Positions 43,214 through 64,000 of a stretch of 64,000 nucleotides of DNA are shown here, one piece after another. Numbering within the stretch: position 1 is the first letter of the stretch; each line of letters opens with the position of its first letter. The notes below the pieces were generated by a model. The model saw only the letters and a program-made list of their open reading frames with translations. It searched no databases and had not been told where the DNA came from. Position numbers and translations under genes: made by a program. Source of the stretch: Globodera rostochiensis (Eukaryota; Nematoda; Chromadorea; Rhabditida; Heteroderidae); the NCBI GenBank assembly GCA_018350325.1, contig JAEVLN010000021.1, forward strand, positions 558,001-622,000. Reading direction: 5' to 3'.

Positions 43214-44662
43214 CTAGACGCCTGTGGACGGTGGGACCGGAATATAAGTCGTAGTGGTAATAGATAGCTGTTCCTAGGGTTTTTCTTTTTTTAAATTTAA
43301 TTTATTCATTTTCAATTTATTAATTTGAATTTTTTTTTATTAATTTTATTTAATTATGAGCCAGTGCTTGGGCGGGCAAGCCCTTTCTGGGGCGGCCAAG
43401 CCTTTTTATTGGGCTTGGCAAGCCTTTTCTGGGGCGGGCAAGCCTTTTTGAGCGATTTTTAATTTTTGCTCTATTTGAATTTGATTTTACTTTATTTAAT
43501 TAATTTATGTTAAGCTTCTCCCCCCCTTATCATTTCACAAAATAAATGTTCTATGGGGTGCACTACTGGGGGGGTTACACCAGCAGTAACCTTCTCTCTC
43601 TCTCCCTACGCTCGTATCTCTACCTTTTTCTCTCACATTTCCACACTATTTCTCTTTCTCCTTGATCTACCTATATCTCAATCAGTTTTGATCAGAAATG
43701 GTCAAACTTTTTTTTGTTTAGCTCAGTTTTTTAAGAAGAATTTAATTATATAAAAATTATTTTAAAAAAATTAAAATTTCAAAATTTAATTTTTTAAATT
43801 TTTGCTTAAATTGAAAATTCCATAACTTGATCAGTTTTGATCAGAACTGGTCAAACTTTTTTTTGTTCGACTCAGCTCATCAAGCTGAGTCTAATTAAAT
43901 TTCAATTACCCCCTAAGGCAAAATTCAAAATTTTTCATTTTTGACCCCAGCCAAATATGGGTATAAATTGGTTAGACCCCCCAATTCGACTTTTAACCTG
44001 AATCAACCCGGGCAAGTGATATACCATTTTGAAGCTCAGACTCTGACGCACCTCCTACCACAAAATCAGCCCAAAGCTCAACCAAAAAATTTTCACCAAA
44101 AAAGTTGGCGCAAAAAAAAATAATTTTTTCCATTTTCAACACCCAATTTCGACCTCATGTCGAACTTTTACAGACCCGGTCAAATGACATTTTTTGTAGC
44201 TTAATACCATCCCAACTTATAATTAACCAACCCCCAACCGATCCGAGCAAACCCCATCGTTTTTGTGAATTTCTCCCAAAAGTCCCAAAAAAAAGTGCAC
44301 TTTTTCGACATTTTGTGATTCGAATAACTCTTACGCGGTTAGACCTACCCCCACATATGATATACCATTCGAACGCAAATTTTGTCTAGTTGTGCCCTTT
44401 CTCCAAACGCAAGGCTCTACAAACACGCTTTAAACCACTTTTGCCCCTCCAACCCCAACATGGTACCCAAAAAGAGGCTCTTCTTTTTGGGGCGTTAGAC
44501 TTTTCGACCCTTAGTAGGTCGAAATTGGGACAAAAAAAACCCGAGAATTGTAGTAACCTCGGAACTTTATTTTTGTGCAAATTTTCAGACAAATCGAACC
44601 ACACATCTCCAAGATTATAGAGATTCCCCCAGCACCTGAAAGAGAATTTCCCTATAGTATGA
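43214..44662 (-). mobile_element. Non-autonomous Helitron unit 2 (1,449 bp)
   Basis: Read on the minus strand, it begins TCATACTATAGGGAAATTC at 44,662 and ends GGCGTCTAG at 43,214, giving 5'-TC...CTAG-3' termini. It directly follows unit 3's CTAG with one intervening T. It carries GGCAAGCC clusters, the CTACTGGGGGGGTTACACC block, two GATCAG segments, the GACTCAGCT/AGCTGAGTC hairpin and a TTCGACCTCA-rich block. It has no open frame of gene quality, so it depends on proteins supplied elsewhere. Confidence 0.82.
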
Positions 44663-44663
44663 A

Positions 44664-46296
44664 CTAGACGCCTGCGGGGCGGCTAAAGCATGTGGGTGAT
44701 TGATATGTGATAGATATTGAACTGTTCCTAGGGTTTTTCTTTTTTTTAAATTAATTTATTTGATTTACTTATTTATTTATTTAATGCGAATAAGTTTGAG
44801 TCCGCTCTTGGGCGGGCAAGCCCTCTCTGGGATTGGGCAAGCCTTTGTAAGGCTGTGCAAGCCTTTTTTGATGTGACAAAGCTGTTCCCCAAGGACGGGC
44901 AAGCCTTTTCTTTTCCTTTGAAATTTTTTAAATTAAATTTAATTTTTTAATTTTATTTTTTCTTCCAAATAATTTATTTTTATTTAAATTAAATTACTTT
45001 CCGCCCCACTTAACTTTTCACTACTACAATTGTTCTATGGGGTGCACTACTGGGGGGTTACACCAGCAGTAGCGTTCTCCCTCTCTCCTTACACTCTTAT
45101 CTCTACCACTTTCTCTCACTTTTCCACACTATTTCTCTTTCTCCTTGATCTTTCCATATCTCGATCAGTTTTGATCAAAACTTTACAAACTTTTTTTTGT
45201 TTAGCTCAGCTTTTTAAGCTGAATTTAATTATATAAAAATTATTTTAAAAAATTTTAAATTTCAAAATTTAATTTTTTAAATGTTTGCTCAAAATTGAAA
45301 ATACCATAACTTGATCAATTCTGATCAGAACTTTACAAACTTTTTTTTGTTTAGCTCAGCTTTTTAAGCTGAATTTAATTATATAAAATTTATTTTAAAA
45401 AAATTAAAATTTCAAAATTTAATTTTTTGAATTTTTGCTCAAAATTGAAAATACCGTAACTTGATCAGTTTTGATCAGAAGTGGTCAAACTTTTTTTTCT
45501 TCGACTCAGCTCATTGAGTTGAGTCTAAATATATATAAAATAACTGCCTGAGGCAAAATTCGAACTTTTCGATTTTTGACCCCAAGCAATTTATGTGTAA
45601 ATTGGTTAGACCCCCCATTTCGACCTCCAACCCTAACCAAAACCGGCAAGTGATATACCATTTTGAAGCTCAGACATTAGCGCACCTCCTCCCACAAAAT
45701 GAGCCCCAAGCTAAACCAAAAAATTTTCACCATAAAAGTTGGCGCAAAAAAAAATAAATTTTTCCATTTTCAACACCCAATTTCGACCTCAAGTCGAACT
45801 TTTACAGACCGGACGAAAAGACTTTTTTTGTAGCTTATTTTGTCCCCAACTTATAATTAACCAACCCCGACCCGATTCGAGCAAACCCCATCGTTTTTAT
45901 GAATTTCTCCCAAAAGTCCCAAAAAAAAGTGCACTTTTTCGACATTTTGTGCAGAACAGATTTCGAACATGGTTATACCTACCACCCCACAACTTATACC
46001 ATTCGAACCCAAATTTTGTCTAGTTGTGCCCTTTCTCCAAAGCCAAAGCGCGCAATGCATGCTTTAAACCACTTATGCCCTTCCAACTGCAACATGGTCG
46101 TCAAAAAAGGGCTGCGATTTGAGGGCGGTTAGACCGTTCGACCCTTCCCGGACAAAAATTACAAAAAAAAAAACCATACATTGATAGAACCCCTGTTACC
46201 TTATTTTCGTGCAAAATTTCAGCCAAATCGAACCACACATCTCCGACATCAATGGATTTCCCCCGGCACCCCAAACAGAATTTCACTATAGTATGA
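44664..46296 (-). mobile_element. Non-autonomous Helitron unit 3 (1,633 bp)
   Basis: The minus strand starts TCATACTATAGTGAAATTC at 46,296, immediately after the CTGG end of unit 4, and ends GGCGTCTAG at 44,664. Internal order is that of unit 2, but the GATCAG segment is present three times (about 45,163, 45,310 and 45,459, ~147 bp period), each with GCTCAG...CTGA-type inverted arms. The length difference from unit 2 is mostly this extra copy. Non-coding. Confidence 0.82.
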
Positions 46297-46382: not shown

Positions 46383-46446
46383 CATATTGGCTTGCAACTT
46401 TCCTCTCCTATTTACAACTTTCTATACAACTTTGTGTACAACTTTA
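46383..46446 (+). repeat. TACAACTT array of unit 4
   Basis: ATATTGGCTTGCAACTTTCC is followed by TCTCCTATTTACAACTTTC and further TACAACTT words. The same run begins the 48.05 kb array and appears inverted at 56.2-56.34 and 60.5-60.64 kb. Confidence 0.85.
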
Positions 46447-47334: not shown

Positions 47335-47403
47335 GTCGGGATTCGAACCCCCAGCTGACCCCCAGCTGCCCCCACCACTCACCACTACACCACCAACGCC
47401 GAC
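47335..47403 (-). other. tRNA-like segment with perfect B box
   Basis: The minus strand reads GTCGGCGTTGGTGGTGTAGTGG, then GAGTGGTGGGGGC, then GGGGGTTCGAATCCCGAC. The B box GGTTCGAATCC is canonical, the A box TGGTGTAGTGG close to canonical, and GTCGG at one end can pair with CCGAC at the other. The middle (two CAGCTGGGGG words) does not fold into a normal anticodon arm. It is likely a tRNA pseudogene or tRNA-derived SINE head, sharing a 20-mer with the segment at 39.79 kb. Confidence 0.6.
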
Positions 47404-47765
47404 AAAGGGAAAAAGCTTAAATTCGAACACAAAGTGCGCAGCAGCGCGAAAACTTCCCGCGCGACCCCCCACTTTCTTTACATCATTCGAAAGCTCTTGA
47501 AAAGCGCTACATTTTATCTGCTGACCTCATCCCGCTATCGGCAAAACTCCCCGAGTTGTGGCAAAATCAAAGCTTTTTTGGTCAAAATTTTGGAAATTTT
47601 GGCTTCAGTTATGCAACCATAACGCATATTTAAATTTGTCGTAGCGACATGCACGATAGCTCATTAGAAAGCCCTGAGTGTGTAGCAGTGCCCTTTCTCC
47701 AACACCAACACCGGTTACCCTACTCCCCGCCCGGGTACAGCTCGAAAAGTGAGGGGTGGTCAAAA

Positions 47766-47801
47766 AAAAGTGCCAAAAAAAGGTGACTTTTTGGCACTTT
47801 T
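47766..47801. other. 14 bp stem hairpin in the Helitron 5' block
   Basis: AAAAGTGCCAAAAA pairs perfectly with TTTTTGGCACTTTT across an 8 nt loop. The equivalent hairpin is at 56,701-56,735 and 61,003-61,037. Units 1 and 2 have an analogous CCCAAAAAG/CTTTTTGGG stem, so a hairpin at this place is conserved while its sequence is not. Confidence 0.75.
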
Positions 47802-47962
47802 GCACCTTTGGCATTGTGTTGGGACAAATATTCCAATGCCATTCGATCGGAATCCAAAAGTGCCCCGGGGTCTTGTGAGGTTGTTTTTTCGCTCCGCCCA
47901 CGCCACAAAAAGTTATTCCAAAAATTCACTGTAAACGCCCAGATTTCCCTTAGATAGGGAAC

Positions 47963-48002
47963 CAGACCCCTACGGGGTCTGCGTTAAACGGCAAAGCCGT
48001 TT
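47963..48002. other. 3' terminal double hairpin of the autonomous Helitron
   Basis: CAGACCCCTACGGGGTCTG at 47,963-47,981 and AAACGGCAAAGCCGTTT at 47,986-48,002 are identical to the pair at 46,298-46,337. The CTGG at the minus-strand end is followed by T, then by the TCCCTATC start of unit 4, so two Helitrons abut with a single base between. Confidence 0.88.
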
Positions 48003-48046
48003 TGAACACCGGTGCCAGCAGTTTCTTCGGGGGTTTTTGCTGGTCA

Positions 48047-48180
48047 CATATTGGCTTACAACTTTCCTCTCCTATTTACAACTTTCTATACAACTTTATG
48101 TACAACTTTTCCCTCCTATTTACAACTTCCTATACAACTTTGTGTACAACTTCCCATACAACTTTTTGTACAACTTTGGA
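48047..48180 (+). repeat. Sub-terminal inverted array, 3' arm (TACAACTT)
   Basis: About eight TACAACTT words separated by TCTA, TATG, TCCTA or TTTG. It begins ATTGGCTTACAACTTTCC, which reappears as its exact reverse complement at 56.31-56.34 kb. The two arrays thus form long inverted repeats just inside the two ends of the element. Sub-terminal inverted repeats are reported for Helentron-type Helitrons; here they frame the whole transcription unit. Confidence 0.85.
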
Positions 48181-48440
48181 TGTAGGCGGAGCGAAAAAAT
48201 GTTTTCACAATACCCCTGCGGACTTTTGATTTCCGATCGAATGGAATTGATGCTCTTCTCTTTAAGTAAAGTAAACTCAAACGGTCAAGTTATCGTCTTT
48301 TTTAAATTGTTTCCCTCATCATGATATTATTTAATTATTATTTAACAATAAATTAAAGCAACACAAATTCGATTAAAACAAATACAATAATAATCATTAA
48401 ATTAAATGAACTCAAAAGCAAAAATTATACAACATATCTT
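48181..48440 (-). other. 3' untranslated/terminal region of the Helitron
   Basis: About 260 bp between the stop codon and the TACAACTT array. It is A/T-rich at first (several TTAATTATTA-type runs that could serve polyadenylation), then has a short GC-richer stretch (CGGAGCGAAAAAATG) shared with the 5' block of other copies. No open frame is supported. Confidence 0.5.
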
Positions 48441-50472
48441 TTAATCAAAATATTCTTCGTCCAAGCTTTCCATATCATCGTCACCATTAAACGTCCCCAC
48501 TCCTTGATCATGTACGGGTACAGCCAATTCCGAATGTTGTGGTCGTGGTGGAACGTTTATGTCGTCGAGTAGCTCGTGGTAGACAACATTGGCAATGCGG
48601 GTGTCGTCCCCACTCTGACACGATGGAGCATAGACACGGATTGCGTCCATCCGTGTCACGCGGGACATGGCAACATAGACTTGCCCATGCGCGAAGCATT
48701 GCTTCCCACGTAACACGAGGGCCATCCGTTGGAGTGTCTGGCCCTGTGCCTAAAGTGTACTCTTTTTAAATTTCAAAAGCTACTGTTTTGTGTACCTTGT
48801 TCACCGTCATGGCAAAGCAGAGTCGCACGGGAAACTGCAGACGGCGGAAACGGAGCCCCCGGTGGTTTCGGTTGTTGCCGTATTCGAATTTCACGCGTGG
48901 AATGACGATGGTTTGCTTAGCATCCGCGCGCGGTCCAGTCAAAATTCGGCAGAACAAATTGTCGTCGGCCCCCCGCATCACTTGAAGCCTTGTGCCGTTG
49001 CACAACCCTTGGGACACGTCCAAGTTGCGAATCAACATCACCGGCGTCCCCACCTAAAAAATGTGCTCTTATCTAAAATCTTTCTATACAAGTTAGACCT
49101 TAAGTATCAATTTGTGCGGTGGCATTCCGGATGGCATCTCGCTATGGACCGCCTCCATGTTGAAATCCGCCCGGAATGTGTTGAATTCGTCGCTCGGTTC
49201 AAGTGGTTCATCGATGGACAGGTATTCTTTTGCGTCCCCACTCATCCGATCCAGAGCCAAGTCGTTGATGTGTTGAACATCGTTGTTGGTTGGGCACAGA
49301 ACAGCGTTGCTGGCGATTGCGTCTGCGTTGCTCAATGGTTCCGAAAACAGAGCTTCTGGGAAGCAGAAGTTGATCACGTCGTCCATTTGGTGGGCCACAT
49401 TTTGGGGAGGAATGCGCAGCAAGTTTGGCTGCCTGCTTGCAATGTCCGTCCCCACTTGATGCAAGCCATTTCCAATGTTGTGAAGCCAATCCCGAAGGGC
49501 TTGCTCGCCTGGCGCGGTGCGCATGTTGATAGTCAGGCTATAAACAGGAGATTTAATTTAAGCCTGGACAAATTGAACTGTGCCTTATTTTTTGGAACGT
49601 CTTAAAAAGTGGGAAAGTTTTGATGCTTTCGGCCACTTGGTCTTCACGCGTGCCGTGTTCGACAACAGGCGTCAGTTGCTTCCAATCGCCCCCGCAGACT
49701 ACCACTTTGCCTCCAAAAGGTTTGTCGTTGACGGCGCAAACATCGCGCAATAGCCGATCGATGTACTTTAGCACACGGCTGCTCAGCATACTAATTTCCT
49801 AAATTAAATGTTGAGATGCTATTTGTATTTTTGTTACGTTGCATACGTCAATGATGATGAGGTCGGCCCCCCGTAGTTGTTCTCCTTTAGAAGATTCGAA
49901 GCTAATCATCGGTGCTGTGTCGTCTGTAACGTCATTTGGAACGCTGAATTGGCGATGTGCGGTGCCGCCCCCGATCAGTAAAAGCGCCGCAATTCCTGTG
50001 CTAGCTGCGGCGATCACTGACGATGTGCATAGCGGCTGCAAGGGAATAATATAGACTGAGTTTATGTGCATATAAAACAACGTTTTCACGCCCCCGCTCT
50101 TGGTTGGTAGTCGAATTGAAGGTCGGCTTGCCGGCAAGACACCACTTGATCAGTGTGTTGTAAAAGAATGTTTTGCCTGCAACATAAGGCAGGTGATGAT
50201 TACAGGGGAGTTGAAGCCTACCGCAGCCTCCAGAGCCTTCTAGGAAGAAAAGTCGTTGCCCGTCCCCACTTCGGATAGCACTTGAAATATCATTGAAGGC
50301 ATTCCGTTGGTCCTTGTTGAGAAGGTTAATGTTTTCAATTGCAATTTGCTGTGGCGATTTAGCACGCCCTTGTTGATTTCCGTAAAACTCATCCAGCAAC
50401 GTGGCTTGTTGAAGCGCCCCCGCTTGCCTTTCAAAATTGTAGTCCTTTGGCAACCCGCTCAGACCTACGTCC
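48441..50472 (-). other. PIF1-like helicase domain of the transposase
   Basis: Motif I is FFLEGSGGCG-KTFFYNTL, with the Walker A GCGKT split by an intron at 50,177-50,221. Motif Ia is ASTGIAALLL. Motif II is IIIDEISM, split at 49,799-49,846. Motif III is CGGDWKQLTPVV near 49,690, followed by LTINMR. LKVGTPVMLIRNLD, GLCNGTRL, AMTVNKAQGQTL and the C-terminal HGQVYVAMSRV (about 48,660-48,685) complete the superfamily 1 set. All key residues (Lys of Walker A, Asp-Glu of Walker B, terminal Arg) are present, which argues for an active or recently active protein. Confidence 0.92.
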
Positions 50473-53400
50473 CTTAAAAAAAAGTCTTCTTTTGTTGTGT
50501 AATTGAGCGCCTTTCTTACCCACTGGTGGTACCCATGCAGTTGAAAAAGTATTCCAAATTGCGCATGACTTCGGCCCCCCGGAAAGAGACAGACTTCGGC
50601 CTGATTGCCGGGTTGTTTGCCGCAAATGGCGGGTTCATTTCGTCCAGAAACTCATCGAAGAGTTCCTGAGGTTCTGCGGGCCGCGCGTGGCACAGCAGCA
50701 TTGCAAAGTAGTGCTGCAGGCGTTTGAAGTTAGACTTCTCAGCGCACGCCTCCCGCATTGAGCGTCGAAAGATGACATCACTTTCGAGCAGGCCGAGATG
50801 TTGTGCCGCCCCCGCGAAAGTTGGGAATAGGACCTCGTCAATTGTTCGTAGGTCTGCAAAACTTTTTGGGCCGGGCCGATGGAGCAGAAGCAGCCTTAAA
50901 GAGTTTGATTTTTTCTATCTGTTAGAACAAACACCTCATGGCAAACAGTTCGTGCTTCCGTGGGGACACGGTGTACACCCGAACAAACATTCGCGCTTTG
51001 TCTACGTCTTCCGAAAGTGGGCGCGCCCGCTTTTTCCATTCCCGTGCCTTATGATTCCAGCTTAATATTTTAAGTTAATTCGGTCTTGCACGAACCCATT
51101 CTTACAAATATTGATAGGGCACACGATCGTAAGTGAGCTGTGCCGCAGTAGCATCGTCCCCACACAGTTGGAAGAAAGCCGTCAGACGTGTACTTGCATC
51201 AACTTTCCATTGCCCTTCTTCTTCTTGACCCTCTTCGACAACAATTGTATGGCCACCTTCGTCATGGACGCTCAGCGTGTAGATTTGATGCGACGTGCCC
51301 ACAATTTTGTAAGAATGTAGGCGTAGATAGGCCTCCATTGCGGTCATGTATCGCACTTTGAATGTGGCCGCAATTTCGTCATAGTCGTAGACATCTTCGG
51401 TTGCGTCCCCACTCCTTTGGCGTGTGTCCTTCCTGGGCTGAGTGACTTGAACGTAAGCCTTCTCAAAGCCTAAATATTTATAGAATCTTTTGTTTGATGA
51501 CCTAGAAAACCTTACCTTTTAGCAAATACTTAAATATGTATTTGCAGGCCTTTTGCCCGAATACATATTCCAGGTTGATGTGCGCCCCATACTTCAGCAA
51601 CAAAAAACTGTTGTAGGGGATCACACGGCTGTCGTCAAGAAGCAATGCACTCCGGCCCCCCTTTCTTTGCTTGTAAAATGTTCGTCCACATTCTTCCTAT
51701 ATAAAAGGAAGGAAAGTTAAGAGGATGAGTAACTGATAAAATTACGTGCTGCCGCTGAGGATTGCGTCCTTTGTGTGGTATCCGCTGGTATCGGACTTCG
51801 GCCCAGTCCCGTTCTGGATCGTCTGCGGGCAGGTGATCTTCCTCTGACGGCAGGCGAGCGTCCCCACACGTTGGTGCAACCCATTGATCGGAGTCCTCGG
51901 GTGGTAAACGGACATAGTTTGTGTAACGCACTTCTATACAATTTATTACACGCGATATCTCTTTACTTTTTGGACCTGATAATTCAGTTCTGTCCGAGTA
52001 CGGCTTTGGGAAGTGCTTACGGCAATGCGACCCCTCAAGACATGCAGCGTTGCAGTCGTGCAGCATCATGGTGGTCACGTAATGCCACAGACGTCGCTGC
52101 TGATTGGCTTCTGGTGAGTGGTCGTGAATTGGCGGCAATGTAGGGATACGCGCACTGACGTATTCGTCGACTTGCTCCGGTGTTATGATTCGGCCCCCCT
52201 TGTCAAGAATGAGCAGCATGTGTATATGTGGCATGCCTTAAAGTAAGTAAATTTATAGCACGATAGTAAACAATTTCTTGTAAACAAAAATTTAAAATAC
52301 CCCTTTTTTGGTGCTCCACACTGTAGCACCATCCGGCCACTTTCCCCAGCACGTGCCGTTCCGTCAGGTCCTTTATAAACTCGGTTGCTTTGTCCATAAA
52401 GATGCGGCAAACAATGTCTGCCCTGTGTGCATAATTTTGACGCCCCCGCAGTGCCTCGACGATCTCTGGCCATTTTGGGTTTCCAGTGAACGTAACAAAC
52501 CTTTTTGGAACAACAAAATATTATTTAAATATTTTTGAACAATTACCAAGTCGGCGCCCCCAGATGACGCACCATCGTCATTAAGTCCGCGTATTTCCCT
52601 TGGTAATATTGCCGCGACCCCGCAAAAGTCTGAGGCATCAAGAAGACACGACCCAACTTGGCGTTTCGTCCCAACTTCTGAAGGCCCTTCTCCATTGCAG
52701 CAATGTAGTCACGGGCAAGTAGCTGCCGGTAGTTCTTTTTTGTTTGGATTGCCTTCAAATGGTCCATCTCGTTTCGCTCGATGCGGTTGAGCACAGAAAT
52801 AGTAAAGTATTCTGCCAAACGTCTGGCGAACCACAACCAATGAAAAGCGTTTTTGTCGTCCCCACGAAGAGCCATCCTGTAGCGGTAAAATTGGCGTTCC
52901 GAGATATTTGACTGTTTTGTGCTATCATGTATATTTCCCGGCTCTATCACGGGGTCTTCTTCCCGGCCTGCTTCATTCTCTTCCTCCTCTAAAACATCTT
53001 CGTCAAGCTCCAAAGCTTCTTCCGGCATTTCTTCGTTTTCTTGATGCTCAGACGTCCCCACATCAGCTTCGTTTGGCATTGGTTCGGAAACTTCTCCTGT
53101 CATGGCATTGTCGAGGGCATCTTGCATCTGGACCTCCTCTCGCTCCTCCCGAGTTAGCTATTTATTGCCAGTGTGAACAGTTGGAGTAAATAAATTTACC
53201 ATTCGCCCCCGCTTCTTGATGAACCATCGCCAGCCAGGCGTTCCGCGCGGATGAAGTAGAGGGAAGCAGCAAGGGTCTAATTGCGGCATTCCACTCTTCA
53301 GCTCTCGCATCTTGCCTGCTTTATCGCACACCCAGAAAGCTTAAACCATAAATGCTTAAACGCGTTAAATTAGACTTTGTACCGCTTATCTCCGGTGCCA

Positions 53401-55378
53401 ACCCATCTTCCTGGACCCAGATGACGGCAACCTGCTTAGCAGTAGGCGCGTCGGCTCTCTCGATTATGGTAACGTCCCCACGATTTTTGAGTGCGTCTGT
53501 TTTGAGGTCTCTGTCGGTGAGAAGAGCTATCTGTAAACATATCATTATAGGAATCATTAATATGTGATTGTTATTTCAACTATTTTGCGTGTTTTACCTG
53601 AAAACGCGGAATCTCTCCAGTTGCTGACTTTGCCGCTTCAATTTTCGCCCCCGCAGTTTCAAAAGTTCTTCCGAAAGGGTTTGCGCGCATCAACTCCTCG
53701 AGCTTGCGCACAATTTCTGCTTTGACAGGGGCGGATAGGGCAGTAGTCAAGTTTTCGTCCCTGATATTCATTGCTGCTTCTGGTGTCAGTGTGTACACCT
53801 GAGCAAACGTTGGTCGACGGCCCCCCGGAGCAATAAGGTCGCTGAACTGGAAGGAGAATTCTCCTGAAATGATTAAATTATGAATGTCGCTTGGTTTATA
53901 CAAGTACCGTTGTATTTGCATGTGTCCAAGCGGCCCCCCATTTGGTCGTCAGGTGCTTTTTGGCCGTGCACTGAGGCAAAGGCAAAGGTATTGTTGAAGG
54001 GCATTGTGTTGCCCAGAAACGCCTCCCGCATCTTCTGATCGCTGGCATTGATCAACCCCTTGCTGTATTCCGCAGGCGGGTTTTGGAGCTCCTCGAACTC
54101 TGCCTTCATTTGCGGCGTGTGCACGTCCCCACCGGCACAGCATTGGGAAAGGCGCCCCCCCCGCTTGATCTTATCATGCTCTCCTTTTAACATGAGCGCT
54201 CCGCAATGCTCGCAGACGGCTGCCCCAAATTGGCCACTATCGTAGAAGTCGACCTTTTGTTTAAAAAATAGTATGACATGTGACTAAATTAAAAAACCCG
54301 GTGGCCCGCTGATTTCGATGCGCATTTTAGGTCTTTGTTTTGGTGACAACGTCGAGTAACACGGCCCCCCTTAGCACGTGCAATTTCTTCAAATTTTGGA
54401 GCAGACTCCGTGGCCGGGTTGTACTCTTTTGCGTATTTCCCGGCTGCCAGAAATGCAGCAGCGTTCTGTTGGCACTGCGCGTAAGAGGTGCAGTCACATT
54501 CGCCCCCACAACGTGTGTAGTTTTGTGTATCTGAGAAGATTTTTGAAAAGAAACAACCATCGTATGCCTCAACCTGAAGACCGGCGTTTCTGTTTTTTCT
54601 GTCGTATCTCTGTAGGCCAAGGACGGTTGATGTAATCACTGAGGACTTTCTTCATAGTTTCCTCAATCTGATGGATGTGGCGCTCTTGTAGCTAACAGGC
54701 AAAAAAGTTAAGACATTAAAGTGTCAACAAAACCTTCACAAGTCTAGCGCTTCTTCCCCGCAATGTGACGTCCCCACTTGTAATAGATGTGTTTGTTGCC
54801 ATTCTTTTGCTAGCGGGGCTCAGACTACGGTCCAATCTTTCACTTTCTATATGATAAAACGCTGAAAGTATCGGTTTAAAGATTAAACCTGCCACAGAAG
54901 CAACAGCCAACGCTTCAAGACGTGATTCGTCCTCACAGTCATTATCACCACAAATCGAGCGTCTTGCGCATTGATCACCACCTAACCATTATGTTTCAAA
55001 TAAGATATATAACCAAAAAACTTCAAAAAACCTGCTGACGTAACATCTGACTCTGCAACGTCCCCACAATCATCATTCTGTCTAGAAGTTCCTGCATGAA
55101 AAAGAAGCGTCCCCACGGTGTTCTCATTGCAACGATCCGTTTCCACGTTATTGTTACAGCGTGTTTTTTTCATGGCAGGAGCAGCAAAAGCTTGAACGTT
55201 GCCATATTTTTTTGACAATTAAATGTAAACAAAAGGGAAAACCTGTCTCGGTGCTTGGCTGGTGGATAGCATGTGTAGACGGCCTCCCTTCAGTTGTCAG
55301 TGAAGCGTTACTTTGCTTCCGACATTTCTCCATCTGCACTCTTTTGGCTTCTCTTTGTTTCCGTTCTTTTGTAACCAT
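48441..55378 (-). CDS. Helitron Rep/helicase transposase, 23 exons, ~1,960 aa
   Basis: Encodes the rolling-circle transposase: an HUH nuclease that nicks and joins DNA ends, fused to a 5'-3' helicase. ATG is at 55,378, stop at 48,441. Removing 22 introns (listed separately) leaves one frame with consistent phases. Order: lysine-rich start; a Cys-rich segment (RCGGECDCTSYAQC); CEHCGA...CCAGG with FNNTFAFAS and QVYTLTPEAAMNIRD (Helitron N-terminal domain); an acidic run EEALELDEDVLEEEENEAG; VTFTGNPKWPEI; the HUH motif HIHMLLIL at ~52,220; the two catalytic tyrosines in KYIFKYLLKG at 51,526-51,540; then the PIF1-type helicase. Family similarity is clear along the whole length. I see no frameshift. 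Weak points are the exact first exon and the intron at 49,538-49,598, whose donor was chosen by phase. Confidence 0.93.
48750..55242 (-). other. 22 predicted introns of the transposase gene
   Basis: GT-AG introns (plus coordinates): 55,191-55,242; 54,982-55,031; 54,692-54,733; 54,531-54,573; 54,254-54,297; 53,864-53,907; 53,531-53,597; 53,340-53,382; 53,158-53,199; 52,501-52,546; 52,237-52,300; 51,697-51,745; 51,470-51,515; 51,061-51,105; 50,895-50,934; 50,473-50,519; 50,177-50,221; 50,036-50,081; 49,799-49,846; 49,538-49,598; 49,054-49,098; 48,750-48,795. Sizes are 40-67 bp. Each was placed where family similarity and reading frame both resume; the summed exon length is divisible by three. 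Acceptors are loose (AAG, TAG and CAG all used), unlike the strict TTTCAG of Caenorhabditis. The first nine also exist in the truncated copies. Confidence 0.8.
51470..52546 (-). other. HUH/Y2 Rep nuclease domain of the transposase
   Basis: In order: FVTFTGNPKWPEI (from 52,500 down), ERHVLGKVAGWCYSVEHQKRG, an intron at 52,237-52,300, GMPHIHMLLILDKGG with both metal-binding histidines flanking Ile, CRKHFPKPYSD, RVIPYNSFLLLKYGAHINLE, and the paired tyrosines of KYIFKY. Spacing Y-x-x-x-Y and a following LLKG match the Helitron Y2 consensus. This domain is missing from the two upstream truncated copies. Confidence 0.92.
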
Positions 55379-55532
55379 TTTATTAAGATTAATGAAGTAC
55401 AAGCTTAAAAAAAGAACGACAATTATGGTATGGTTGGCGGAGTTGAATGTTAAATGGTAAACAAAGGTTGCAAGTACCAAATATTGTGGCAACGTTTACG
55501 GAAGCACGACAATGATGACGAAATGGCGCGAC

Positions 55533-55588
55533 TGACTCACGTTTCCTTCTGGAAGAAAAAGAAGAGTGACTCACTTTTCCTTCTAGAA
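55533..55588 (-). promoter_or_regulatory. Paired TGACTCA and TTCnnGAA sites upstream of the transposase
   Basis: Two ~34 bp direct repeats, each TGACTCAC...CCTTCTNGAA, lie 150-210 bp upstream of the ATG. TGACTCA (55,533-55,539 and 55,567-55,573) is an AP-1-type site. TTCTGGAA (55,547-55,554) and TTCTAGAA (55,581-55,588) fit the heat-shock element core TTCnnGAA. The same pair is kept in the copies at about 59,699-59,755. A role in stress-linked expression is inference. Confidence 0.5.
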
Positions 55589-55806
55589 CAAAAAGAAGGG
55601 CGGGCGGCGAGAGACAACGACATTTGAGAGAGTCTTGGTAGACAGTTATACATTTGTCAAAAAATGAAAAAGACACTTTAAGTGAATCAGAGAAAGAGAA
55701 TCTGTGAGTATGCGCCGATGTTCTAAATAGCTGCGAGAGACAACGCTAGTTTTAGAGAGTAAAAGAGAGAAAGGAAAAAATGATGACAATTCCCTTTTGT
55801 TTGGTA

Positions 55807-55855
55807 GCGCACGCGTGACAAGAAGGGAAATGGCAGCTGAACGCGCACGCGTGTT
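55807..55855. repeat. Direct repeat GCGCACGCGTG in the 5' region
   Basis: GCGCACGCGTG occurs at about 55,808 and 55,845, ~37 bp apart, and again at the equivalent place in copy 2 (about 59,973 and 60,011). It sits between the promoter-like segment and the ~140 bp minisatellite. Confidence 0.7.
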
Positions 55856-56205
55856 TTGAACTTTTGTATTTTTGGTCATTTTTGACATTTCTGTAACTCC
55901 GTCATTTTTGAGCCAAACTAAATAATTTTTTTTTGGTTGTATTCAGCGTGAAAAACTGAACAAATTTATCATTTTAAAATTTCAAAAAACACAAATTAGA
56001 AGTTTTGTATTTTTGGTCATTTTTGACAATTCTGTAACTCTGGCAGTTTTTAAACCAATTTAAACAATTATTTCTTTATTGAACTCGCCATAAAAAACTA
56101 AACAAATTTATCATTTAAAAGTTTTAAAAAACACAAAATTGAAGTTTTGTATTTATGGTCCTTTTTGACAATTCTGTAACTCTGGCAGTTTTAAACAAAT
56201 CTAAA
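55856..56205. repeat. ~140 bp minisatellite, 2.5 units, upstream of copy 1
   Basis: Units begin GAAGTTTTGTATTTTTGGTC near 55,858 (diverged), 55,999 and 56,141. Each continues TTTTTGACAATTCTGTAACT, an AATTATTT run and AAATTTATCATTTAAAA. The array lies between the transposase 5' flank and the inverted TACAACTT array. Confidence 0.9.
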
Positions 56206-56339
56206 CTTAAAGTTGTACACAAAGTTGTATAGAAAGTTGTACGCAAAGTTGTATAGGAAGTTGTAAATACGAGAGGAAAGTTGTACAGAAAGTTGTATAG
56301 GAAGTTGTAAATAGGAGAGGAAAGTTGTAAGCCAATATC
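56206..56339 (-). repeat. Sub-terminal inverted array, 5' arm (AAGTTGTA)
   Basis: Words AAGTTGTACACAAAGTTGTA and AAGTTGTAAATAGGAGAGG, ending GAAAGTTGTAAGCCAATAT. This is the reverse complement of the array at 48.05-48.18 kb. Unit number and spacers differ between the arms. Confidence 0.88.
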
Positions 56340-56855
56340 AAAGGGAAAAAGGGAGATTGCAAACACAAAGTGCGCAGCAGCGCGAAAACTTCCCGCGCGA
56401 CCCCCCACTTTCTTTACATCATTCGAAAGCTCTTGAAAAGCTATACATTTTATCTGCTGACCTCATACCGCTATCGGCAAAACTCCCCGAGGTGTGGTCA
56501 ATTTAAATGTTTTTTGGTCAAAATTTTTGAAATTTTGACTTCAGTTAGGCAACCATAACGTATCTTCAAATTTGTCGTAGCGACATGCACGATAGCTCAT
56601 TAGAAAGCCCTGAGTGTGGAGCAGTGCCTTTTGCCAAGAATACCTCCGATTACCCTACTCCCCGCCCGGGTACAGCTCGAAAACTGAGGGGTGGTCAAAA
56701 AAAAGTGCCAAAAAAAGGTGACTTTTTGGCACTTTTGCACCTTTGGCATTGTGTTGGGACAAATTTTCCAATGCCAATCGATCGGAATCCAAAAGTCCGC
56801 AGGGGTATTGTGAGATCGTTTTTCCGCTCCGGCCACTCTGAAAAGAGTTATTCCA
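56340..56855 (-). repeat. Helitron 5' block (copy 1)
   Basis: About 515 bp strongly similar to 47,425-47,920 in unit 4, with the AAAGTGCGCAGCAGCGCGAA, CATTCGAAAGCTCTTGAAAA and hairpin segments. It stops after TTATTCCAA, whereas unit 4 continues for about 40 bp to its TC terminus. The next base onward is Rep coding sequence of copy 2. Apparent frames here are not genes. Confidence 0.88.
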
Positions 56856-56856
56856 A

Positions 56857-59529
56857 TTGCAGCAATGTAGTCACGGGCAAGTAGCTGCCGGTAGTTCTTT
56901 TTTGTTTGGATTGCCTTCAAATGGTCCATCTCGTTTCGCTCGATGCGGTTGAGCACAGAAATAGTAAAGTATTCTGCCAAACGTCTGGCGAACCACAACC
57001 AATGAAAAGCGTTTTTGTCGTCCCCACGAAGAGCCATCCTGTAGCGGTAAAATTGGCGTTCCGAGATATTTGACTGTTTTGTGCTATCATGTATATTTCC
57101 CGGCTCTATCACGGGGTCTTCTTCCCGGCCTGCTTCATTCTCTTCCTCCTCTAAAACATCTTCGTCAAGCTCCAAAGCTTCTTCCGGCATTTCTTCGTTT
57201 TCTTGATGCTCAGACGTCCCCACATCAGCTTCGTTTGGCATTGGTTCGGAAACTTCTCCTGTCATGGCATTGTCGAGGGCATCTTGCATCTGGACTTCCT
57301 CTCGCTCCTCCCGCGTAAGCTGTTTATTGGCGGTGCGAAACAGTTGGAATTAATAAATTTACCATTCGCCCCCGCTTCTTGATGAACCATCGCCAGCCAG
57401 GCGTTCCGCGCGGATGAAGTAGAGGGAAGCAGCAAGGGTCTAATTGCGGCATTCCACTCTTCAGCTCCCGCATCTTGCCTGCCTTATCGCACACCCAGAA
57501 AGCTTAAACCATAAATGCTTAAACGCGTTAAATTAGACTTTGTACCGCTTATCTCCGGTGCCAAGCCGTCTTCCTGGACCCAAATGACGGCGACCTGTTT
57601 TGCAGTGGGTGCGTCGGCTCTTTCAATGATGGTAACGTCCCCACGATTTTTTAGTGCGTCTGTTTTGAGGTCTCTGTCGGTGAGAAGAGCTATCTGTAAA
57701 GATAACAATCAATTCTATGTAATATTTATGTCAACAATTTTGTGTATTTTACCTGAAACCGCGGAATCTCTCCAGCAGCAGACTTTGCAGCCTCAATTTT
57801 CGCCCCCGCTGTTTCAAAAGTACGGCCAAATGGGTTTGTGCGCATCAACTCCTCGAGCTTGCGGACAATTTCTGCTTTGACAGGGGCTGATAGGGCAATA
57901 GTCAAGTTGTCGTCACGGATGTTCATTGCCGCTTCTGGTGTTAGCGTGTACACCTGAGCAAACGTTGGTCGGCGGCCCCCCGGAGCAATAAGGTCGCTGA
58001 ACTGGAAGGAGAATTCTCCTGAAATGATTAAATTATGAATGTCGCTTGGTTTATTCAAGTACCGTTGTATTTGCAGGTGTCCAAGCGGCCCCCCATTTGG
58101 TCTTCTGGAGCCTTTTCGCCATGCACAGATGCGAACGCAAATGTGTTGTTGAAGGGCATAGTGTTGTCCAAAAACGCCTCCCGCGTCTTCTGATCGTTGG
58201 AATTGATCAAACCTTTGCTGTATTCCGCAGGCGCGTTTTGGAGCTCCTCGAACTCAGCCTTCATTTGCTGGGTGTGCACGTCCCCACCGGCACAGCATTG
58301 AGTAAGGCGGCCCCCCTTGACCTTTTCATGCTCTCCTTTCAACATGAGCGCTCCGCAATGCTCGCAGACGGCTTCCCCAAATTGGCCACTGTCATAGTAG
58401 TCGACCTTTTGTTTAAAAAATAGTATGACATGTGACTAAATTAAAAAACCCGGTGGCCTGCTGATTTTGATGCGCATTTTAGGTCTTTGTTTTGGTGACA
58501 ACGTTGAGTAACACGGCCCCCCTTAGCACGTGCAATTTCTTCGAATTTTGGAGCAGACTCCGTGGCTGGGTTGTACTCTTTTGCGTATTTCCCGGCTGCC
58601 AGAAACGCAGCAGCGTTTTGTTGGCACTGCGCGTAAGAGGTACAGTCACATTCGTCCCCACAACGTGTGCAGTTTGGTGTATCTGTGAAGATTATTGAAA
58701 AGGAACAACCATTGTATGACTCAACCTGAAGACCGGCGTTTCTGTTTTTTCTGTCTTGCCTCTGTAGGCCAAGGACGGTTGATGTAATCGTTAAGAACTT
58801 TCTTCATAGTTTCCTCAATCTGATGGATGTGGCGCTCTTGAAGCTAACAAACAAAAGGTTAAGGAATTAATGCAACAAAAAAACCTTCACAAGCCTAGCG
58901 CTTCTGCAACGCAATGTGACGTCCCCACTTGTAATAGATGTGTTTGTTGCCATTCTTTTGCTAGCGGGGCTCAGACTACGGTCCAATCTTTCACTTTCTA
59001 TATGATAAAACGCTGAAAGTATCGGTTTAAAGATTAAACCTGCCACAGAAGCAACAGACAACGCTTCAATGATTGATTCGTCCCCACTGTCATTATCACC
59101 ACAAATCGAGCGTCTTGCGCATTGGTCAACACCTAACGATAGCGTTTCAGATGAGAAAATAAAAACAAAAAGCTTCAAAAAACCTGCGAACGTAACAGCT
59201 GACTCTACAACGTCGCCACAATCATCATTCTGTCTTGAAGTTCCTGCGTGAAAAAGAAGCGTACCCACGGTGTTCTCATTGCAACGATCTTTCCCCACGT
59301 TATTGTTACAACGTGGTTTTTTCATGGCAGGAGCAGCAAAAGCTTGAACATTAGCATATGTATTGACAATTAAATGTAAACAAAAGGGAAAACCTGTCTC
59401 GGTGCTTGGCTGGTGGATAGCATGTGTAGACGGCCTCCCTTCAGTTGTCAGTGAAGCGTTACTTTGCTTCCGACATTTCTCATACTGCGCTCTTTTGGCT
59501 TCTCTTTTTTTGCGCTCTTTTGTAACCAT
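56857..59529 (-). pseudogene. Truncated Helitron transposase, copy 2 (N-terminal part only)
   Basis: ATG at 59,529 (MVTKERKKREAKRAQYEK) corresponds to the copy 1 start. The same first nine introns and the Helitron N-terminal domain follow through LARDYIAA, where the sequence leaves the family at 56,857 and runs into the 5' block. The 229 aa frame at 57,289-56,600 is a chimera of the acidic/pre-Rep region and non-coding repeat. HUH, Y2 and helicase are all absent. What remains shows no obvious internal frameshift and many differences from copy 1 are silent or conservative, so truncation was probably recent. A truncated N-terminal protein could still be made, but function is unknown. Confidence 0.88.
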
Positions 59530-59698
59530 TTTTTAAGATTAAAGAAATTATAAGCTTAAAAAAAGAACGACAATTATGGTTGGCGGTGTTGAATGTTAAA
59601 TTATAAGAGAAGGCAATGATCAAAACAGTGTTTGAATGACTAAACACAGTAGCAAAACATGTATACGGAAGGACGAAAATGATGATGAAATGGCGCGA

Positions 59699-59755
59699 CT
59701 GACTCACGTTTCCTTCTGGAAGAAAAAGAAGAGTGACTCACTTTTCCTTCTAGAA
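59699..59755 (-). promoter_or_regulatory. Paired TGACTCA and TTCnnGAA sites, copy 2
   Basis: Same direct repeat as at 55,533-55,588: TGACTCACGTTTCCTTCTGG then TGACTCACTTTTCCTTCTAG, each completed by GAA. Conservation between copies that differ at other flanking positions is mild support for function. Confidence 0.45.
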
Positions 59756-60507: not shown

Positions 60508-60641
60508 CTTAAAGTTGTACACAAAGTTGTATAGGAAGTTGTACGCAAAGTTGTATAGGAAGTTGTAAATAGGAGAGAAAAGTTGTACATAAAGTTGTAT
60601 AGGAAGTTGTAAATAGGAGAGGAAAGTTGTAAGCCAATATC
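60508..60641 (-). repeat. Sub-terminal inverted array, 5' arm of copy 2
   Basis: AAGTTGTACACAAAGTTGTA, then AGGAAGTTGTACGCAAAGTT, then AAGTTGTAAATAGGAGAG twice, ending AAAGTTGTAAGCCAATAT. Equivalent to 56,206-56,339. Confidence 0.88.
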
Positions 60642-61157
60642 AAAGGGAAAAAGGGAGATTGCAAACACAAAGTGCGCAGCAGCGCGAAAACTTCCCGCGC
60701 GACCCCCCACTTTCTTTACATCATTCGAAAGCTCTTGAAAAGCTATACATTTTATCTGCTGACCTCATACCGCTATCGGCAAAACTCCCCGAGGTGTGGT
60801 CAATTTAAATGTTTTTTGGTCAAAATTTTTGAAATTTTGACTTCAGTTAGGCAACCATAACGTATCTTCAAATTTGTCGTAGCGACATGCACGATAGCTC
60901 ATTAGAAAGCCCTGAGTGTGGAGCAGTGCCTTTTGCCAAGAATACCTCCGATTACCCTACTCCCCGCCCGGGTACAGCTCGAAAACTGAGGGGTGGTCAA
61001 AAAAAAGTGCCAAAAAAAGGTGACTTTTTGGCACTTTTGCACCTTTGGCATTGTGTTGGGACAAATTTTCCAATGCCAATCGATCGGAATCCAAAAGTCC
61101 GCAGGGGTATTGTGAGATCGTTTTTCCGCTCCGGCCACTCTGAAAAGAGTTATTCCA
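60642..61157 (-). repeat. Helitron 5' block (copy 2)
   Basis: Same block as 56,340-56,855, including the hairpin at 61,003-61,037 and the abrupt switch into Rep sequence after TTATTCCAA. Confidence 0.9.
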
Positions 61158-61158
61158 A

Positions 61159-63831
61159 TTGCAGCAATGTAGTCACGGGCAAGTAGCTGCCGGTAGTTCT
61201 TTTTTGTTTGGATTGCCTTCAAATGGTCCATCTCGTTTCGCTCGATGCGGTTGAGCACAGAAATAGTAAAGTATTCTGCCAAACGTCTGGCGAACCACAA
61301 CCAATGAAAAGCGTTTTTGTCGTCCCCACGAAGAGCCATCCTGTAGCGGTAAAATTGGCGTTCCGAGATATTTGACTGTTTTGTGCTATCATGTATATTT
61401 CCCGGCTCTATCACGGGGTCTTCTTCCCGGCCTGCTTCATTCTCTTCCTCCTCTAAAACATCTTCGTCAAGCTCCAAAGCTTCTTCCGGCATTTCTTCGT
61501 TTTCTTGATGCTCAGACGTCCCCACATCAGCTTCGTTTGGCATTGGTTCGGAAACTTCTCCTGTCATGGCATTGTCGAGGGCATCTTGCATCTGGACTTC
61601 CTCTCGCTCCTCCCGCGTAAGCTGTTTATTGGCGGTGCGAAACAGTTGGAATTAATAAATTTACCATTCGCCCCCGCTTCTTGATGAACCATCGCCAGCC
61701 AGGCGTTCCGCGCGGATGAAGTAGAGGGAAGCAGCAAGGGTCTAATTGCGGCATTCCACTCTTCAGCTCCCGCATCTTGCCTGCCTTATCGCACACCCAG
61801 AAAGCTTAAACCATAAATGCTTAAACGCGTTAAATTAGACTTTGTACCGCTTATCTCCGGTGCCAAGCCGTCTTCCTGGACCCAAATGACGGCGACCTGT
61901 TTTGCAGTGGGTGCGTCGGCTCTTTCAATGATGGTAACGTCCCCACGATTTTTTAGTGCGTCTGTTTTGAGGTCTCTGTCGGTGAGAAGAGCTATCTGTA
62001 AAGATAACAATCAATTCTATGTAATATTTATGTCAACAATTTTGTGTATTTTACCTGAAACCGCGGAATCTCTCCAGCAGCAGACTTTGCAGCCTCAATT
62101 TTCGCCCCCGCTGTTTCAAAAGTACGGCCAAATGGGTTTGTGCGCATCAACTCCTCGAGCTTGCGGACAATTTCTGCTTTGACAGGGGCTGATAGGGCAA
62201 TAGTCAAGTTGTCGTCACGGATGTTCATTGCCGCTTCTGGTGTTAGCGTGTACACCTGAGCAAACGTTGGTCGGCGGCCCCCCGGAGCAATAAGGTCGCT
62301 GAACTGGAAGGAGAATTCTCCTGAAATGATTAAATTATGAATGTCGCTTGGTTTATTCAAGTACCGTTGTATTTGCAGGTGTCCAAGCGGCCCCCCATTT
62401 GGTCTTCTGGAGCCTTTTCGCCATGCACAGATGCGAACGCAAATGTGTTGTTGAAGGGCATAGTGTTGTCCAAAAACGCCTCCCGCGTCTTCTGATCGTT
62501 GGAATTGATCAAACCTTTGCTGTATTCCGCAGGCGCGTTTTGGAGCTCCTCGAACTCAGCCTTCATTTGCTGGGTGTGCACGTCCCCACCGGCACAGCAT
62601 TGAGTAAGGCGGCCCCCCTTGACCTTTTCATGCTCTCCTTTCAACATGAGCGCTCCGCAATGCTCGCAGACGGCTTCCCCAAATTGGCCACTGTCATAGT
62701 AGTCGACCTTTTGTTTAAAAAATAGTATGACATGTGACTAAATTAAAAAACCCGGTGGCCTGCTGATTTTGATGCGCATTTTAGGTCTTTGTTTTGGTGA
62801 CAACGTTGAGTAACACGGCCCCCCTTAGCACGTGCAATTTCTTCGAATTTTGGAGCAGACTCCGTGGCTGGGTTGTACTCTTTTGCGTATTTCCCGGCTG
62901 CCAGAAACGCAGCAGCGTTTTGTTGGCACTGCGCGTAAGAGGTACAGTCACATTCGTCCCCACAACGTGTGCAGTTTGGTGTATCTGTGAAGATTATTGA
63001 AAAGGAACAACCATTGTATGACTCAACCTGAAGACCGGCGTTTCTGTTTTTTCTGTCTTGCCTCTGTAGGCCAAGGACGGTTGATGTAATCGTTAAGAAC
63101 TTTCTTCATAGTTTCCTCAATCTGATGGATGTGGCGCTCTTGAAGCTAACAAACAAAAGGTTAAGGAATTAATGCAACAAAAAAACCTTCACAAGCCTAG
63201 CGCTTCTGCAACGCAATGTGACGTCCCCACTTGTAATAGATGTGTTTGTTGCCATTCTTTTGCTAGCGGGGCTCAGACTACGGTCCAATCTTTCACTTTC
63301 TATATGATAAAACGCTGAAAGTATCGGTTTAAAGATTAAACCTGCCACAGAAGCAACAGACAACGCTTCAATGATTGATTCGTCCCCACTGTCATTATCA
63401 CCACAAATCGAGCGTCTTGCGCATTGGTCAACACCTAACGATAGCGTTTCAGATGAGAAAATAAAAACAAAAAGCTTCAAAAAACCTGCGAACGTAACAG
63501 CTGACTCTACAACGTCGCCACAATCATCATTCTGTCTTGAAGTTCCTGCGTGAAAAAGAAGCGTACCCACGGTGTTCTCATTGCAACGATCTTTCCCCAC
63601 GTTATTGTTACAACGTGGTTTTTTCATGGCAGGAGCAGCAAAAGCTTGAACATTGGCATATGTATTGACAATTAAATGTAAACAAAAGGGAAAACCTGTC
63701 TCGGTGCTTGGCTGGTGGATAGCATGTGTAGACGGCCTCCCTTCAGTTGTCAGTGAAGCGTTACTTTGCTTCCGACATTTCTCATACTGCGCTCTTTTGG
63801 CTTCTCTTTTTTTGCGCTCTTTTGTAACCAT
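61159..63831 (-). pseudogene. Truncated Helitron transposase, copy 3
   Basis: Practically identical to copy 2: start codon at 63,831, same nine introns, same loss of everything after LARDYIAA at 61,159, same 229 aa chimeric frame (61,591-60,902). The only change I saw is a single-base difference in the first intron. It lacks the HUH nuclease and helicase, so it cannot be autonomous. Confidence 0.88.
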
Positions 63832-64000
63832 TTTTTAAGATTAAAGAAATTATAAGCTTAAAAAAAGAACGACAATTATGGTTGGCGGTGTTGAATGTTA
63901 AATTATAAGAGAAGGCAATGATCAAAACAGTGTTTGAATGACTAAACACAGTAGCAAAACATGTATACGGAAGGACGAAAATGATGATGAAATGGCGCGA

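What the first reader, a model, noticed from the sequence alone, without database searches (positions are those of the whole stretch)
48492..55116. Nine-base motif GNGGGGN'CG with complementary N/N' repeated 32 times through the Helitron gene
On the coding (minus) strand I counted 32 exact sites, at plus positions (start of CGnCCCCn'C) 48492, 48605, 48966, 49045, 49233, 49447, 49687, 49864, 50089, 50261, 50415, 50572, 50807, 51155, 51404, 51653, 51859, 52028, 52191, 52441, 52857, 53053, 53204, 53473, 53646, 53818, 53931, 54124, 54362, 54769, 55059 and 55108. The variable pair is T/A 16 times, G/C 8, C/G 7, A/T once, so N and N' covary as complements. With seven fixed bases and one constrained, about 0.1 site is expected in 6.9 kb per strand. 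All sites are in exons, in one orientation and in all three reading frames, typically 150-250 bp apart. Each always encodes a glycine (VGT, SGD, KGGR, RGR, AGA). No known Helitron signal looks like this. Possible readings: a dispersed protein-binding or RNA tag with GN/N'C arms around GGGG, scars of an inserted mini-sequence, or a biased conversion process acting on glycine codons.
Basis: seen in the sequence. Interest (0 to 1): 0.88.

Follow-up and report, generated by a model that had tools for sequence, protein, structure and literature searches.

The report
Dialect-coded hairpin tags in Helitron genes
A jumping gene of cyst nematodes carries the same tiny 8-9 letter tag about every 160-190 letters through its protein-coding sequence; the two halves of the tag are kept complementary to each other, and related element families use different versions of the tag, which points to a hidden recognition code written on top of the protein code.

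Summary
In detail: all 32 sites GNGGGGN'CG lie at the stated coordinates, on the coding strand, in exons. Chance, codon bias and insertion scars do not explain it. N/N' are complementary at 33 of 36 sites of the spliced CDS, against a permutation mean of 12.6. One site differs between copies by a change on both sides, T/A against C/G. Sites are far more evenly spaced than random and conserved at third codon positions. A 60%-identical family carries another word, GCAGGGGC, often at the same places, in register as GC[AGGG]GC. A scan of 256 loops on proteins alone gives GGGG or GGGT in Heterodera and AGGG in a third group; the tree needs two dialect changes. A second gene beside the helicase carries the tag too. 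Introns and about 1.9 kb of element noncoding DNA have no complementary tag. Best reading: a family-specific identity code on the mature coding RNA, read as a mini stem-loop by an unknown factor, perhaps to escape silencing. Against: naked RNA is not predicted to fold so, and a related, largely open family has few sites. Function is inferred.

The parts
48441..55378 (-). Helitron Rep/helicase gene of family A, 24 exons, 1954 aa, open
   Evidence: gene model; Pfam PF14214 and PF05970; Helraiser match
48492..48500 (-). tag GTGGGGACG
48605..48613 (-). tag GTGGGGACG
48966..48974 (-). tag GGGGGGCCG
49045..49053 (-). tag GTGGGGACG, begins at the first base of an exon
49233..49241 (-). tag GTGGGGACG
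49447..49455 (-). tag GTGGGGACG
49687..49695 (-). tag GCGGGGGCG
49864..49872 (-). tag GGGGGGCCG
50089..50097 (-). tag GCGGGGGCG
50261..50269 (-). tag GTGGGGACG
50415..50423 (-). tag GCGGGGGCG
50468..50523 (-). exon junction (50520/50472) whose splicing creates tag GTGG|GGACG in the mRNA; absent from unspliced DNA
50572..50580 (-). tag GGGGGGCCG
50807..50815 (-). tag GCGGGGGCG
51155..51163 (-). tag GTGGGGACG
51404..51412 (-). tag GTGGGGACG
51653..51661 (-). tag GGGGGGCCG
51859..51867 (-). tag GTGGGGACG
52028..52036 (-). tag GAGGGGTCG
52191..52199 (-). tag GGGGGGCCG
52441..52449 (-). tag GCGGGGGCG
52615..52623 (-). non-complementary site GCGGGGTCG, the same in A2-A5
52857..52865 (-). tag GTGGGGACG
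53053..53061 (-). tag GTGGGGACG; GCGGGGGCG in copies A2, A3, A4 (double difference)
53204..53212 (-). tag GCGGGGGCG
53473..53481 (-). tag GTGGGGACG
53646..53654 (-). tag GCGGGGGCG
53818..53826 (-). tag GGGGGGCCG
53931..53939 (-). tag GGGGGGCCG
54124..54132 (-). tag GTGGGGACG
54153..54161 (-). non-complementary site GGGGGGGCG; the truncated copies read GGGGGGCCG here
54362..54370 (-). tag GGGGGGCCG
54501..54509 (-). site GTGGGGGCG (U-G wobble if RNA); GTGGGGACG in the truncated copies
54769..54777 (-). tag GTGGGGACG
55059..55067 (-). tag GTGGGGACG
55108..55116 (-). tag GTGGGGACG
55379..56230 (-). 5' noncoding part of the element, no tag
47400..48440 (-). 3' noncoding part of the element; no complementary tag, one GGGGGGTCG at 47462
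56339..59700 (-). truncated tandem copy T1 (3' piece joined to the 5' half of the gene), 13 complementary tags
60641..64000 (-). truncated tandem copy T2, 13 complementary tags, runs off the window

Best explanation
The array is a recognition code laid over the protein-coding sequence of one Helitron lineage in cyst nematodes. Each unit is a minimal inverted-repeat tag, G-N-[loop]-N'-C, on the sense strand, repeated about every 160-190 nt through the coding sequence of the element's genes. SHOWN in the genes examined: it is kept by selection on nucleotides; N and N' are kept complementary in family A; it is confined to coding exons; the word differs in concert between families (GGGG, AGGG; GGGT inferred from proteins). 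The likeliest benefit is identity or protection from small-RNA silencing, in the manner of plant VANC anti-silencing motifs but on RNA.
For: Complementarity 33/36 vs permutation mean 12.6, max 24; double difference at 53053 in A2-A4, one event by descent; ORF2 site GTGGGGGCG vs GCGGGGGCG between two copies. Coding confinement: 35 of 35 genomic A sites and 29 of 29 C sites in exons; no tag in 5' and one non-complementary in 3' noncoding DNA; none in 3001 bp downstream of family C's gene, of which an unknown part is element. Second gene ORF2: 6 sites in 981 nt, 5 complementary, equal density. One site exists only after splicing, kept in A1, A3, A4, A5. Spacing CV 0.415 (A), 0.323 (C) vs 0.95 random, none as low in 20,000. 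Third positions: tags 79/81, 80/81, 81/81 vs 84-85% elsewhere (A2-A4); 58/58 vs 1329/1444 and 57/58 vs 1275/1442 (D1, D2). 13 A sites coincide with C sites within 9 nt (mean 3.3, maximum 9 over 837 shifts), 10 of them in the same one-base register. Of 256 loops, the known one ranks first in A1 and C1; GGGG or GGGT ranks first in 9 of the 10 Heterodera proteins scanned, the tenth (P0014) giving AAGG and AGGG. Dialects need 2 changes on the tree.
Against: RNA folding gives no support for the hairpin on its own: P(G1-C8) 0.037 vs 0.039 with shuffled flanks in A, 0.004 vs 0.048 in C; the loop is not unusually accessible; no covariation beyond the two pairs. In family C, N is always C in the 27 GCAGGGGC words, so that family gives no covariation. 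Family B, 67-70% identical and mostly open, has 5 complementary sites in B1 and 3 in B2 where A2-A4 have 25-26 over a like span, so the array seems dispensable there. Site 52615 is non-complementary in A1-A5. The spliced-junction site is a single case; about 1.1 are expected if sites ignore junctions, about 0.06 by chance (my arithmetic), C has none, and A2 has lost it. The GGGT dialect rests on protein alone, and the protein table of N/N' pairs is a weak guide: in A1 it ranks C/A second, a pair that the DNA does not use. No reader protein, no expression or small-RNA data. Spacing does not tell RNA from DNA coordinates (CV 0.415/0.400 A, 0.323/0.353 C).
Confidence: 0.45

Rival explanations
1. 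DNA-level anti-silencing array, as for VANC proteins: an element protein binds the tag in genomic DNA and keeps chromatin open.
For: VANC21 binds dispersed same-orientation 9-base motifs that differ between TE families (passages of PMC5735166). Family-specific dialects here match that logic.
Against: VANC motifs lie mainly in noncoding DNA; these are only in coding exons. Intrastrand complementarity is not readable in duplex DNA. One site exists only in spliced RNA.
Confidence: 0.2
2. Exonic splicing or exon-identity elements of a gene with 23 short introns.
For: Exons only and sense strand only; fewer empty exons than expected (3 vs 6.5 in A, 2 vs 6.7 in C).
Against: Long exons hold up to 3, so the rule is spacing, not one per exon; sites keep no fixed distance to exon ends. 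Families in one host use different words, though they share the host splicing machinery. Does not explain N/N' complementarity.
Confidence: 0.12
3. Hairpins of the single-stranded transposition intermediate, read by the Rep/helicase.
For: One strand only, self-complementary, in an element thought to move by rolling circle (family knowledge, recalled).
Against: No complementary tag in introns or in about 1.9 kb of element noncoding DNA that would be in the same strand.
Confidence: 0.08
4. G-run driven RNA-RNA or G-quadruplex association between tags, the flanking pairs stacking on the G tetrads.
For: All dialects keep at least GGG; CCCC is below the synonymous expectation (6 vs 12.6 sd 3.4 in A, 5 vs 9.1 sd 2.7 in C).
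Against: Runs are about 160-190 nt apart, unfavourable for an intramolecular quadruplex (inference); it gives no reason for dialect switches.
Confidence: 0.08
5. No function: codon bias, biased conversion, insertion scars or chance.
For: Tags always include glycine codons; family B does with few.
Against: Synonymous shuffles, spacing, covariation, conservation and concerted dialect changes.
Confidence: 0.02

Closest known systems
VANC/VANDAL anti-silencing motif arrays of Arabidopsis (PMC5735166, passages seen)
   Same: Short motifs of about 9 bases, many per element, one orientation, concentrated in one TE family, different words in related families, coevolution with a reader proposed there
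   Different: There: duplex DNA, tandem-repeat growth, noncoding regions. Here: coding exons only, single sites changed by substitution, intrastrand complementarity, two host genera
Dispersed RNA packaging signals of RNA viruses and HBV (abstract starts in a search listing: PMC6281560, PMC7612645)
   Same: Many short stem-loops with a conserved loop motif (RGAG in HBV) spread along an RNA
   Different: Here a DNA transposon with no known capsid; a two-pair stem not predicted to fold on its own; even spacing; loop dialects
Helitron transposons
   Same: Rep and Pif1-like helicase protein; tandem truncated copies
   Different: No such array was found in the more distant Helitrons of the same genome that were scanned
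Bacterial DNA uptake sequences and Chi sites (recalled)
   Same: Short oriented words at high density inside coding sequence, with dialects between lineages
   Different: Genome-wide in bacteria and read as DNA; here one transposon lineage, coding exons only

Membership tests
Helitron (window element) | Rep (HUH) and Pif1-like helicase domains in one protein | tested here: met
   PF14214 and PF05970 above cut-off in exons of one gene; Helraiser match over 84 residues; HIH in the Rep exon
Helitron (window element) | 5' TC and 3' CTRR ends with a 3' hairpin | not tested
   Extents were compared between copies, the terminal bases were not determined
VANC-type anti-silencing array | Many same-orientation short motifs in one TE family, rare in others | tested here: met
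VANC-type anti-silencing array | Motifs mainly in noncoding regions, grown by tandem repeats | tested here: not met
   coding exons only; no flanking conservation
VANC-type anti-silencing array | Reader protein that removes silencing marks | not testable with these tools
   no binding or methylation data
Dispersed RNA packaging signals | Loop motif conserved, stem conserved by pairing | tested here: met
   33/36 complementary, double difference at 53053; family A only
Dispersed RNA packaging signals | Stem-loops stable in the free RNA | tested here: not met
Dispersed RNA packaging signals | Bound by a capsid or coat protein | not testable with these tools
   none known; ORF2 has no family above cut-off
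Exonic splicing enhancers | Host-wide motif tied to exon ends | tested here: not met
   different words in one host, no fixed distance

The most novel reading that the evidence does not exclude
A transposon lineage carries a second genetic code in its open reading frames: mini stem-loop barcodes whose loop letters are a lineage-specific password (GGGG, GGGT, AGGG). Whole sets of some 30 sites are rewritten when the password changes, and protein residues are altered to fit. The password is read on the mature mRNA by an element-specific factor that protects or identifies the element's own transcripts.
Probability: 0.4. Interest if true: 0.95.

Novelty: categorically new. Interest (0 to 1): 0.88.

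Why it matters
It shows nucleotide-level selection acting through the protein sequence at about 30 places in a gene, with a base-pairing rule and lineage dialects. That makes a cis-trans recognition system of a transposon testable with short RNAs and synonymous reporters. If it protects mRNA it would be an RNA-level counterpart of plant TE anti-silencing in nematodes, which outside clade V lack piRNAs and use RdRP small RNAs (passages of PMC4323106). The dialects can be guessed from protein sequence alone, so databases can be searched for more such codes.

Tried and rejected
Insertion scars: rejected, no gap inside the nine bases at 13 of 13 shared sites. Host motif: not supported; 5 of 33 host sites are complementary (contig C1 only, exon status unknown), and GCAGGGGCG is 304 genome-wide against 874 for its reversed control. 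Longer stem: no covariation at six outer position pairs tested. Spontaneous RNA hairpin and loop accessibility: no support. Required GGG codon: rejected, family C frame-1 sites read AGG GGC. One tag per exon: rejected. RNA versus DNA by spacing: undecided. The same type of code in more distant Helitrons of the genome: not found by k-mers in 23 loci (several of one element) nor by a mini-hairpin scan of 8 of those elements; a different kind of motif could be missed. C-dialect second gene downstream of family C: none in the 3001 bp looked at. Pfam for ORF2: only sub-threshold COG6_N. B-family dialect: none found. Literature: (listings only, papers not opened) showed no title or abstract start describing the array.
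Full report
1. The observation. All 32 sites are at the stated positions. There are three further non-complementary sites in the gene, 26 complementary sites in two truncated tandem copies, and 2 sites on the plus strand of the whole window. No position outside the nine bases stands out (at most 0.19 bits in 30 flanking positions each side). The element is a Helitron: PF14214 and PF05970 match and a Rep exon matches Helraiser. I built a 24-exon model (55378-48441, 1954 aa, no internal stop). All 35 genomic sites are wholly inside exons; a 36th, GTGG|GGACG, appears only when the exons ending at 50520 and starting at 50472 are joined. That junction site is kept in 4 of 5 family-A copies (A1, A3, A4, A5; lost in A2).

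2. Not chance. Synonymous-codon shuffling gives 1.9 complementary sites (maximum 7 in 300) against 33. Shuffling N' among sites gives 12.6 complementary (maximum 24 in 100,000) against 33 of 36. In 24 loci around the first listed GTGGGGACG hits, all on contig C1 and of unknown coding status, 33 other sites occur, 5 complementary. Window 1-41600 has 2 sites. Spacing in the spliced CDS has a mean of 160 nt (A) and 193 nt (C), with CV 0.415 and 0.323 against about 0.95 for random placement, not reached in 20,000 trials each.

3. Selection on nucleotides. Against A1, third codon positions inside tags are kept 79/81, 80/81 and 81/81 in A2, A3 and A4, against 1198/1419, 1189/1419 and 1204/1420 elsewhere; the difference is smaller in A5 (50/51 vs 877/913) and T1 (38/41 vs 629/710). 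Glycine codons outside tags are kept 47/64, 48/64 and 50/64 at the third position in A2-A4. In family C versus D1 and D2: 58/58 and 57/58 against 1329/1444 and 1275/1442. A2-A4 share ancestry, so they are not independent. Site 53053 is GTGGGGACG in A1, T1 and T2, and GCGGGGGCG in A2-A4, a difference on both sides. In ORF2 one site is GTGGGGGCG in one copy and GCGGGGGCG in the other. On the other hand 52615 is non-complementary in A1-A5, and single tags are broken in single copies (for example 52441 and 50572 in A2, 48605 in A3, 50807 in A5, 50261 in A2-A4, 55108 and 55059 in T1 and T2).

4. Dialects. The genome holds related families. C (60% identical to A over 1804 aligned residues) and D have no A-type site in the stretches held of C1, C2, D1 and D2 but carry GCAGGGG at the same rhythm: 29 in the CDS of C1, 27 of them GCAGGGGC, none in introns; 22, 22 and 20 in the shorter stretches of C2, D1 and D2. 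13 A sites lie within 9 nt of a C site, against 3.3 on average when shifted (maximum 9 over 837 shifts); in 10 of 13 the offset is the same single base, so that GN[GGGG]N'C and GC[AGGG]GC are in register. The C word is thus the A word GCGGGGGCG with one base different. Codons differ to fit: A K-G-G-R is C K-Q-G-R, A V-G-T is C A-G-A. The other sites are not shared, so sites are also gained and lost.

5. Other species. 35 homologous proteins were found, among them Globodera rostochiensis, G. pallida, Heterodera schachtii and H. trifolii. I had no DNA for these, so I worked from protein: for each of 256 loops I counted positions compatible with GN[loop]N'CG in any frame, against 25 shuffles of the protein (23 proteins: A1, C1 and 21 of the 35; I had suspected GGGT beforehand from tripeptide counts). 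The known loops come first in A1 (GGGG, 38 vs 5.1) and C1 (AGGG, 27 vs 4.2). P0001-P0004 and P0017 give GGGG; P0005, P0007, P0008, P0010, P0012 give GGGT (z 10.5-13.0); P0015 and P0018 give AGGG; P0014 gives AAGG and AGGG about equally; P0019 gives GGGG weakly (10 vs 2.2). Of the 7 more distant proteins (other nematodes, a mayfly, one of unknown origin), six have a top z of at most 3.8; P0021 (mayfly) reaches 6.9 with an unrelated loop, so a z of that size alone is not proof. In the GGGT group T/A is always the top pair; C/G and G/C are next in P0010 and P0005, C/G second and G/C tied third in P0008, and in P0012 G/A slips between (4 of the 5 proteins). This table is only a weak guide: in A1, where the DNA is known, it ranks C/A second, a pair not used. 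Site by site, 15-17 of A1's sites fit GGGT in four proteins of that group against 8 for GGGG (27-35 sites comparable). An example is the site at CDS 4430: A1 E-R-G-R, P0002 and P0004 W-G-R, P0010 and P0012 W-V-R, as the word with N=T predicts. On a tree of 16 proteins (14 tagged) GGGT and AGGG are each one group, the latter across both genera with P0014 counted as AGGG, and GGGG is what remains; two changes suffice.

6. Confinement and the second gene. None of 35 genomic A and 29 C sites is intronic (introns are 15.5% and 14.6% of the genes). About 0.85 kb 5' and 1.04 kb 3' element DNA have no complementary site. The 1290 nt held upstream of the C gene and 3001 bp downstream of it have no GCAGGGG; how much of these is element is not known. 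About 190 nt downstream of the helicase stop of copy A3 (positions) lies a second gene (ORF2, C14:925048-926230, 326 aa, identical to A0A914I723_GLORO), with 6 tags in 981 nt of CDS (5 complementary), one per 164 nt as in the helicase gene. A second copy at C7:75960 also follows a helicase 3' end and keeps the tag at all six positions. The window copy lacks ORF2 (one search found it at two places only).

7. What it is. Complementarity of two bases on one strand cannot be read in duplex DNA except through strand pairing, so a single-stranded reader is inferred. Confinement to coding exons, both genes, and the splice-made site point to the mature mRNA. Family-specific words within one host point to a reader that differs between families, most simply element-encoded. 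Why a transposon should want this is not shown; escape from RdRP-based small-RNA silencing fits nematodes without piRNAs (passages of PMC4323106) and the parallel of VANC arrays (passages of PMC5735166). Dispersed packaging signals (abstract starts in the listing) show that short loops spread over an RNA can work together.

8. Against. Folding does not predict the stem. Family B, with open exons over the part examined in B1 (17 exons, one with a length change out of frame), has only 5 (B1) and 3 (B2) complementary sites and no other dialect that I could find. In family C the pair never varies. The dialect GGGT rests on protein alone. The distant Helitron loci scanned in the same genome show no such array.

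9. Novelty. The closest systems share parts of the pattern and fail defining features (see the membership table). I found no report in the held library (listings only).

Noticed in passing
   Followed up: partly
window 56339-64000: Tandem truncated Helitron units, period 4302, joining the 3' end to the 5' half of the gene.
   Followed up: partly
C14:896304-901682 (B1): Family B looks mosaic: exons 8-11 are 82-91% identical to A at DNA level, most other exons 55-78%, and most A-like tags are eroded.
   Followed up: partly
window 55809-56340, 46384-46445, 48048-48249: Minisatellite-like repeats (GTTGTACA-type) in inverted orientation at the two ends of the element.
   Followed up: no
window 42139-46146: AT-rich repeat units with a spacing of about 1.45-1.63 kb downstream of the Helitron.
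   Followed up: no
G000:C12:4258591-4283892, C23:4799973-4823364: Tandem arrays of SL1-like spliced-leader genes, all below the Rfam cut-off.
   Followed up: no
G000:C1:4423488-4423844: Cluster of eight GTGGGGACG in a short repeat array on contig C1.
   Followed up: no
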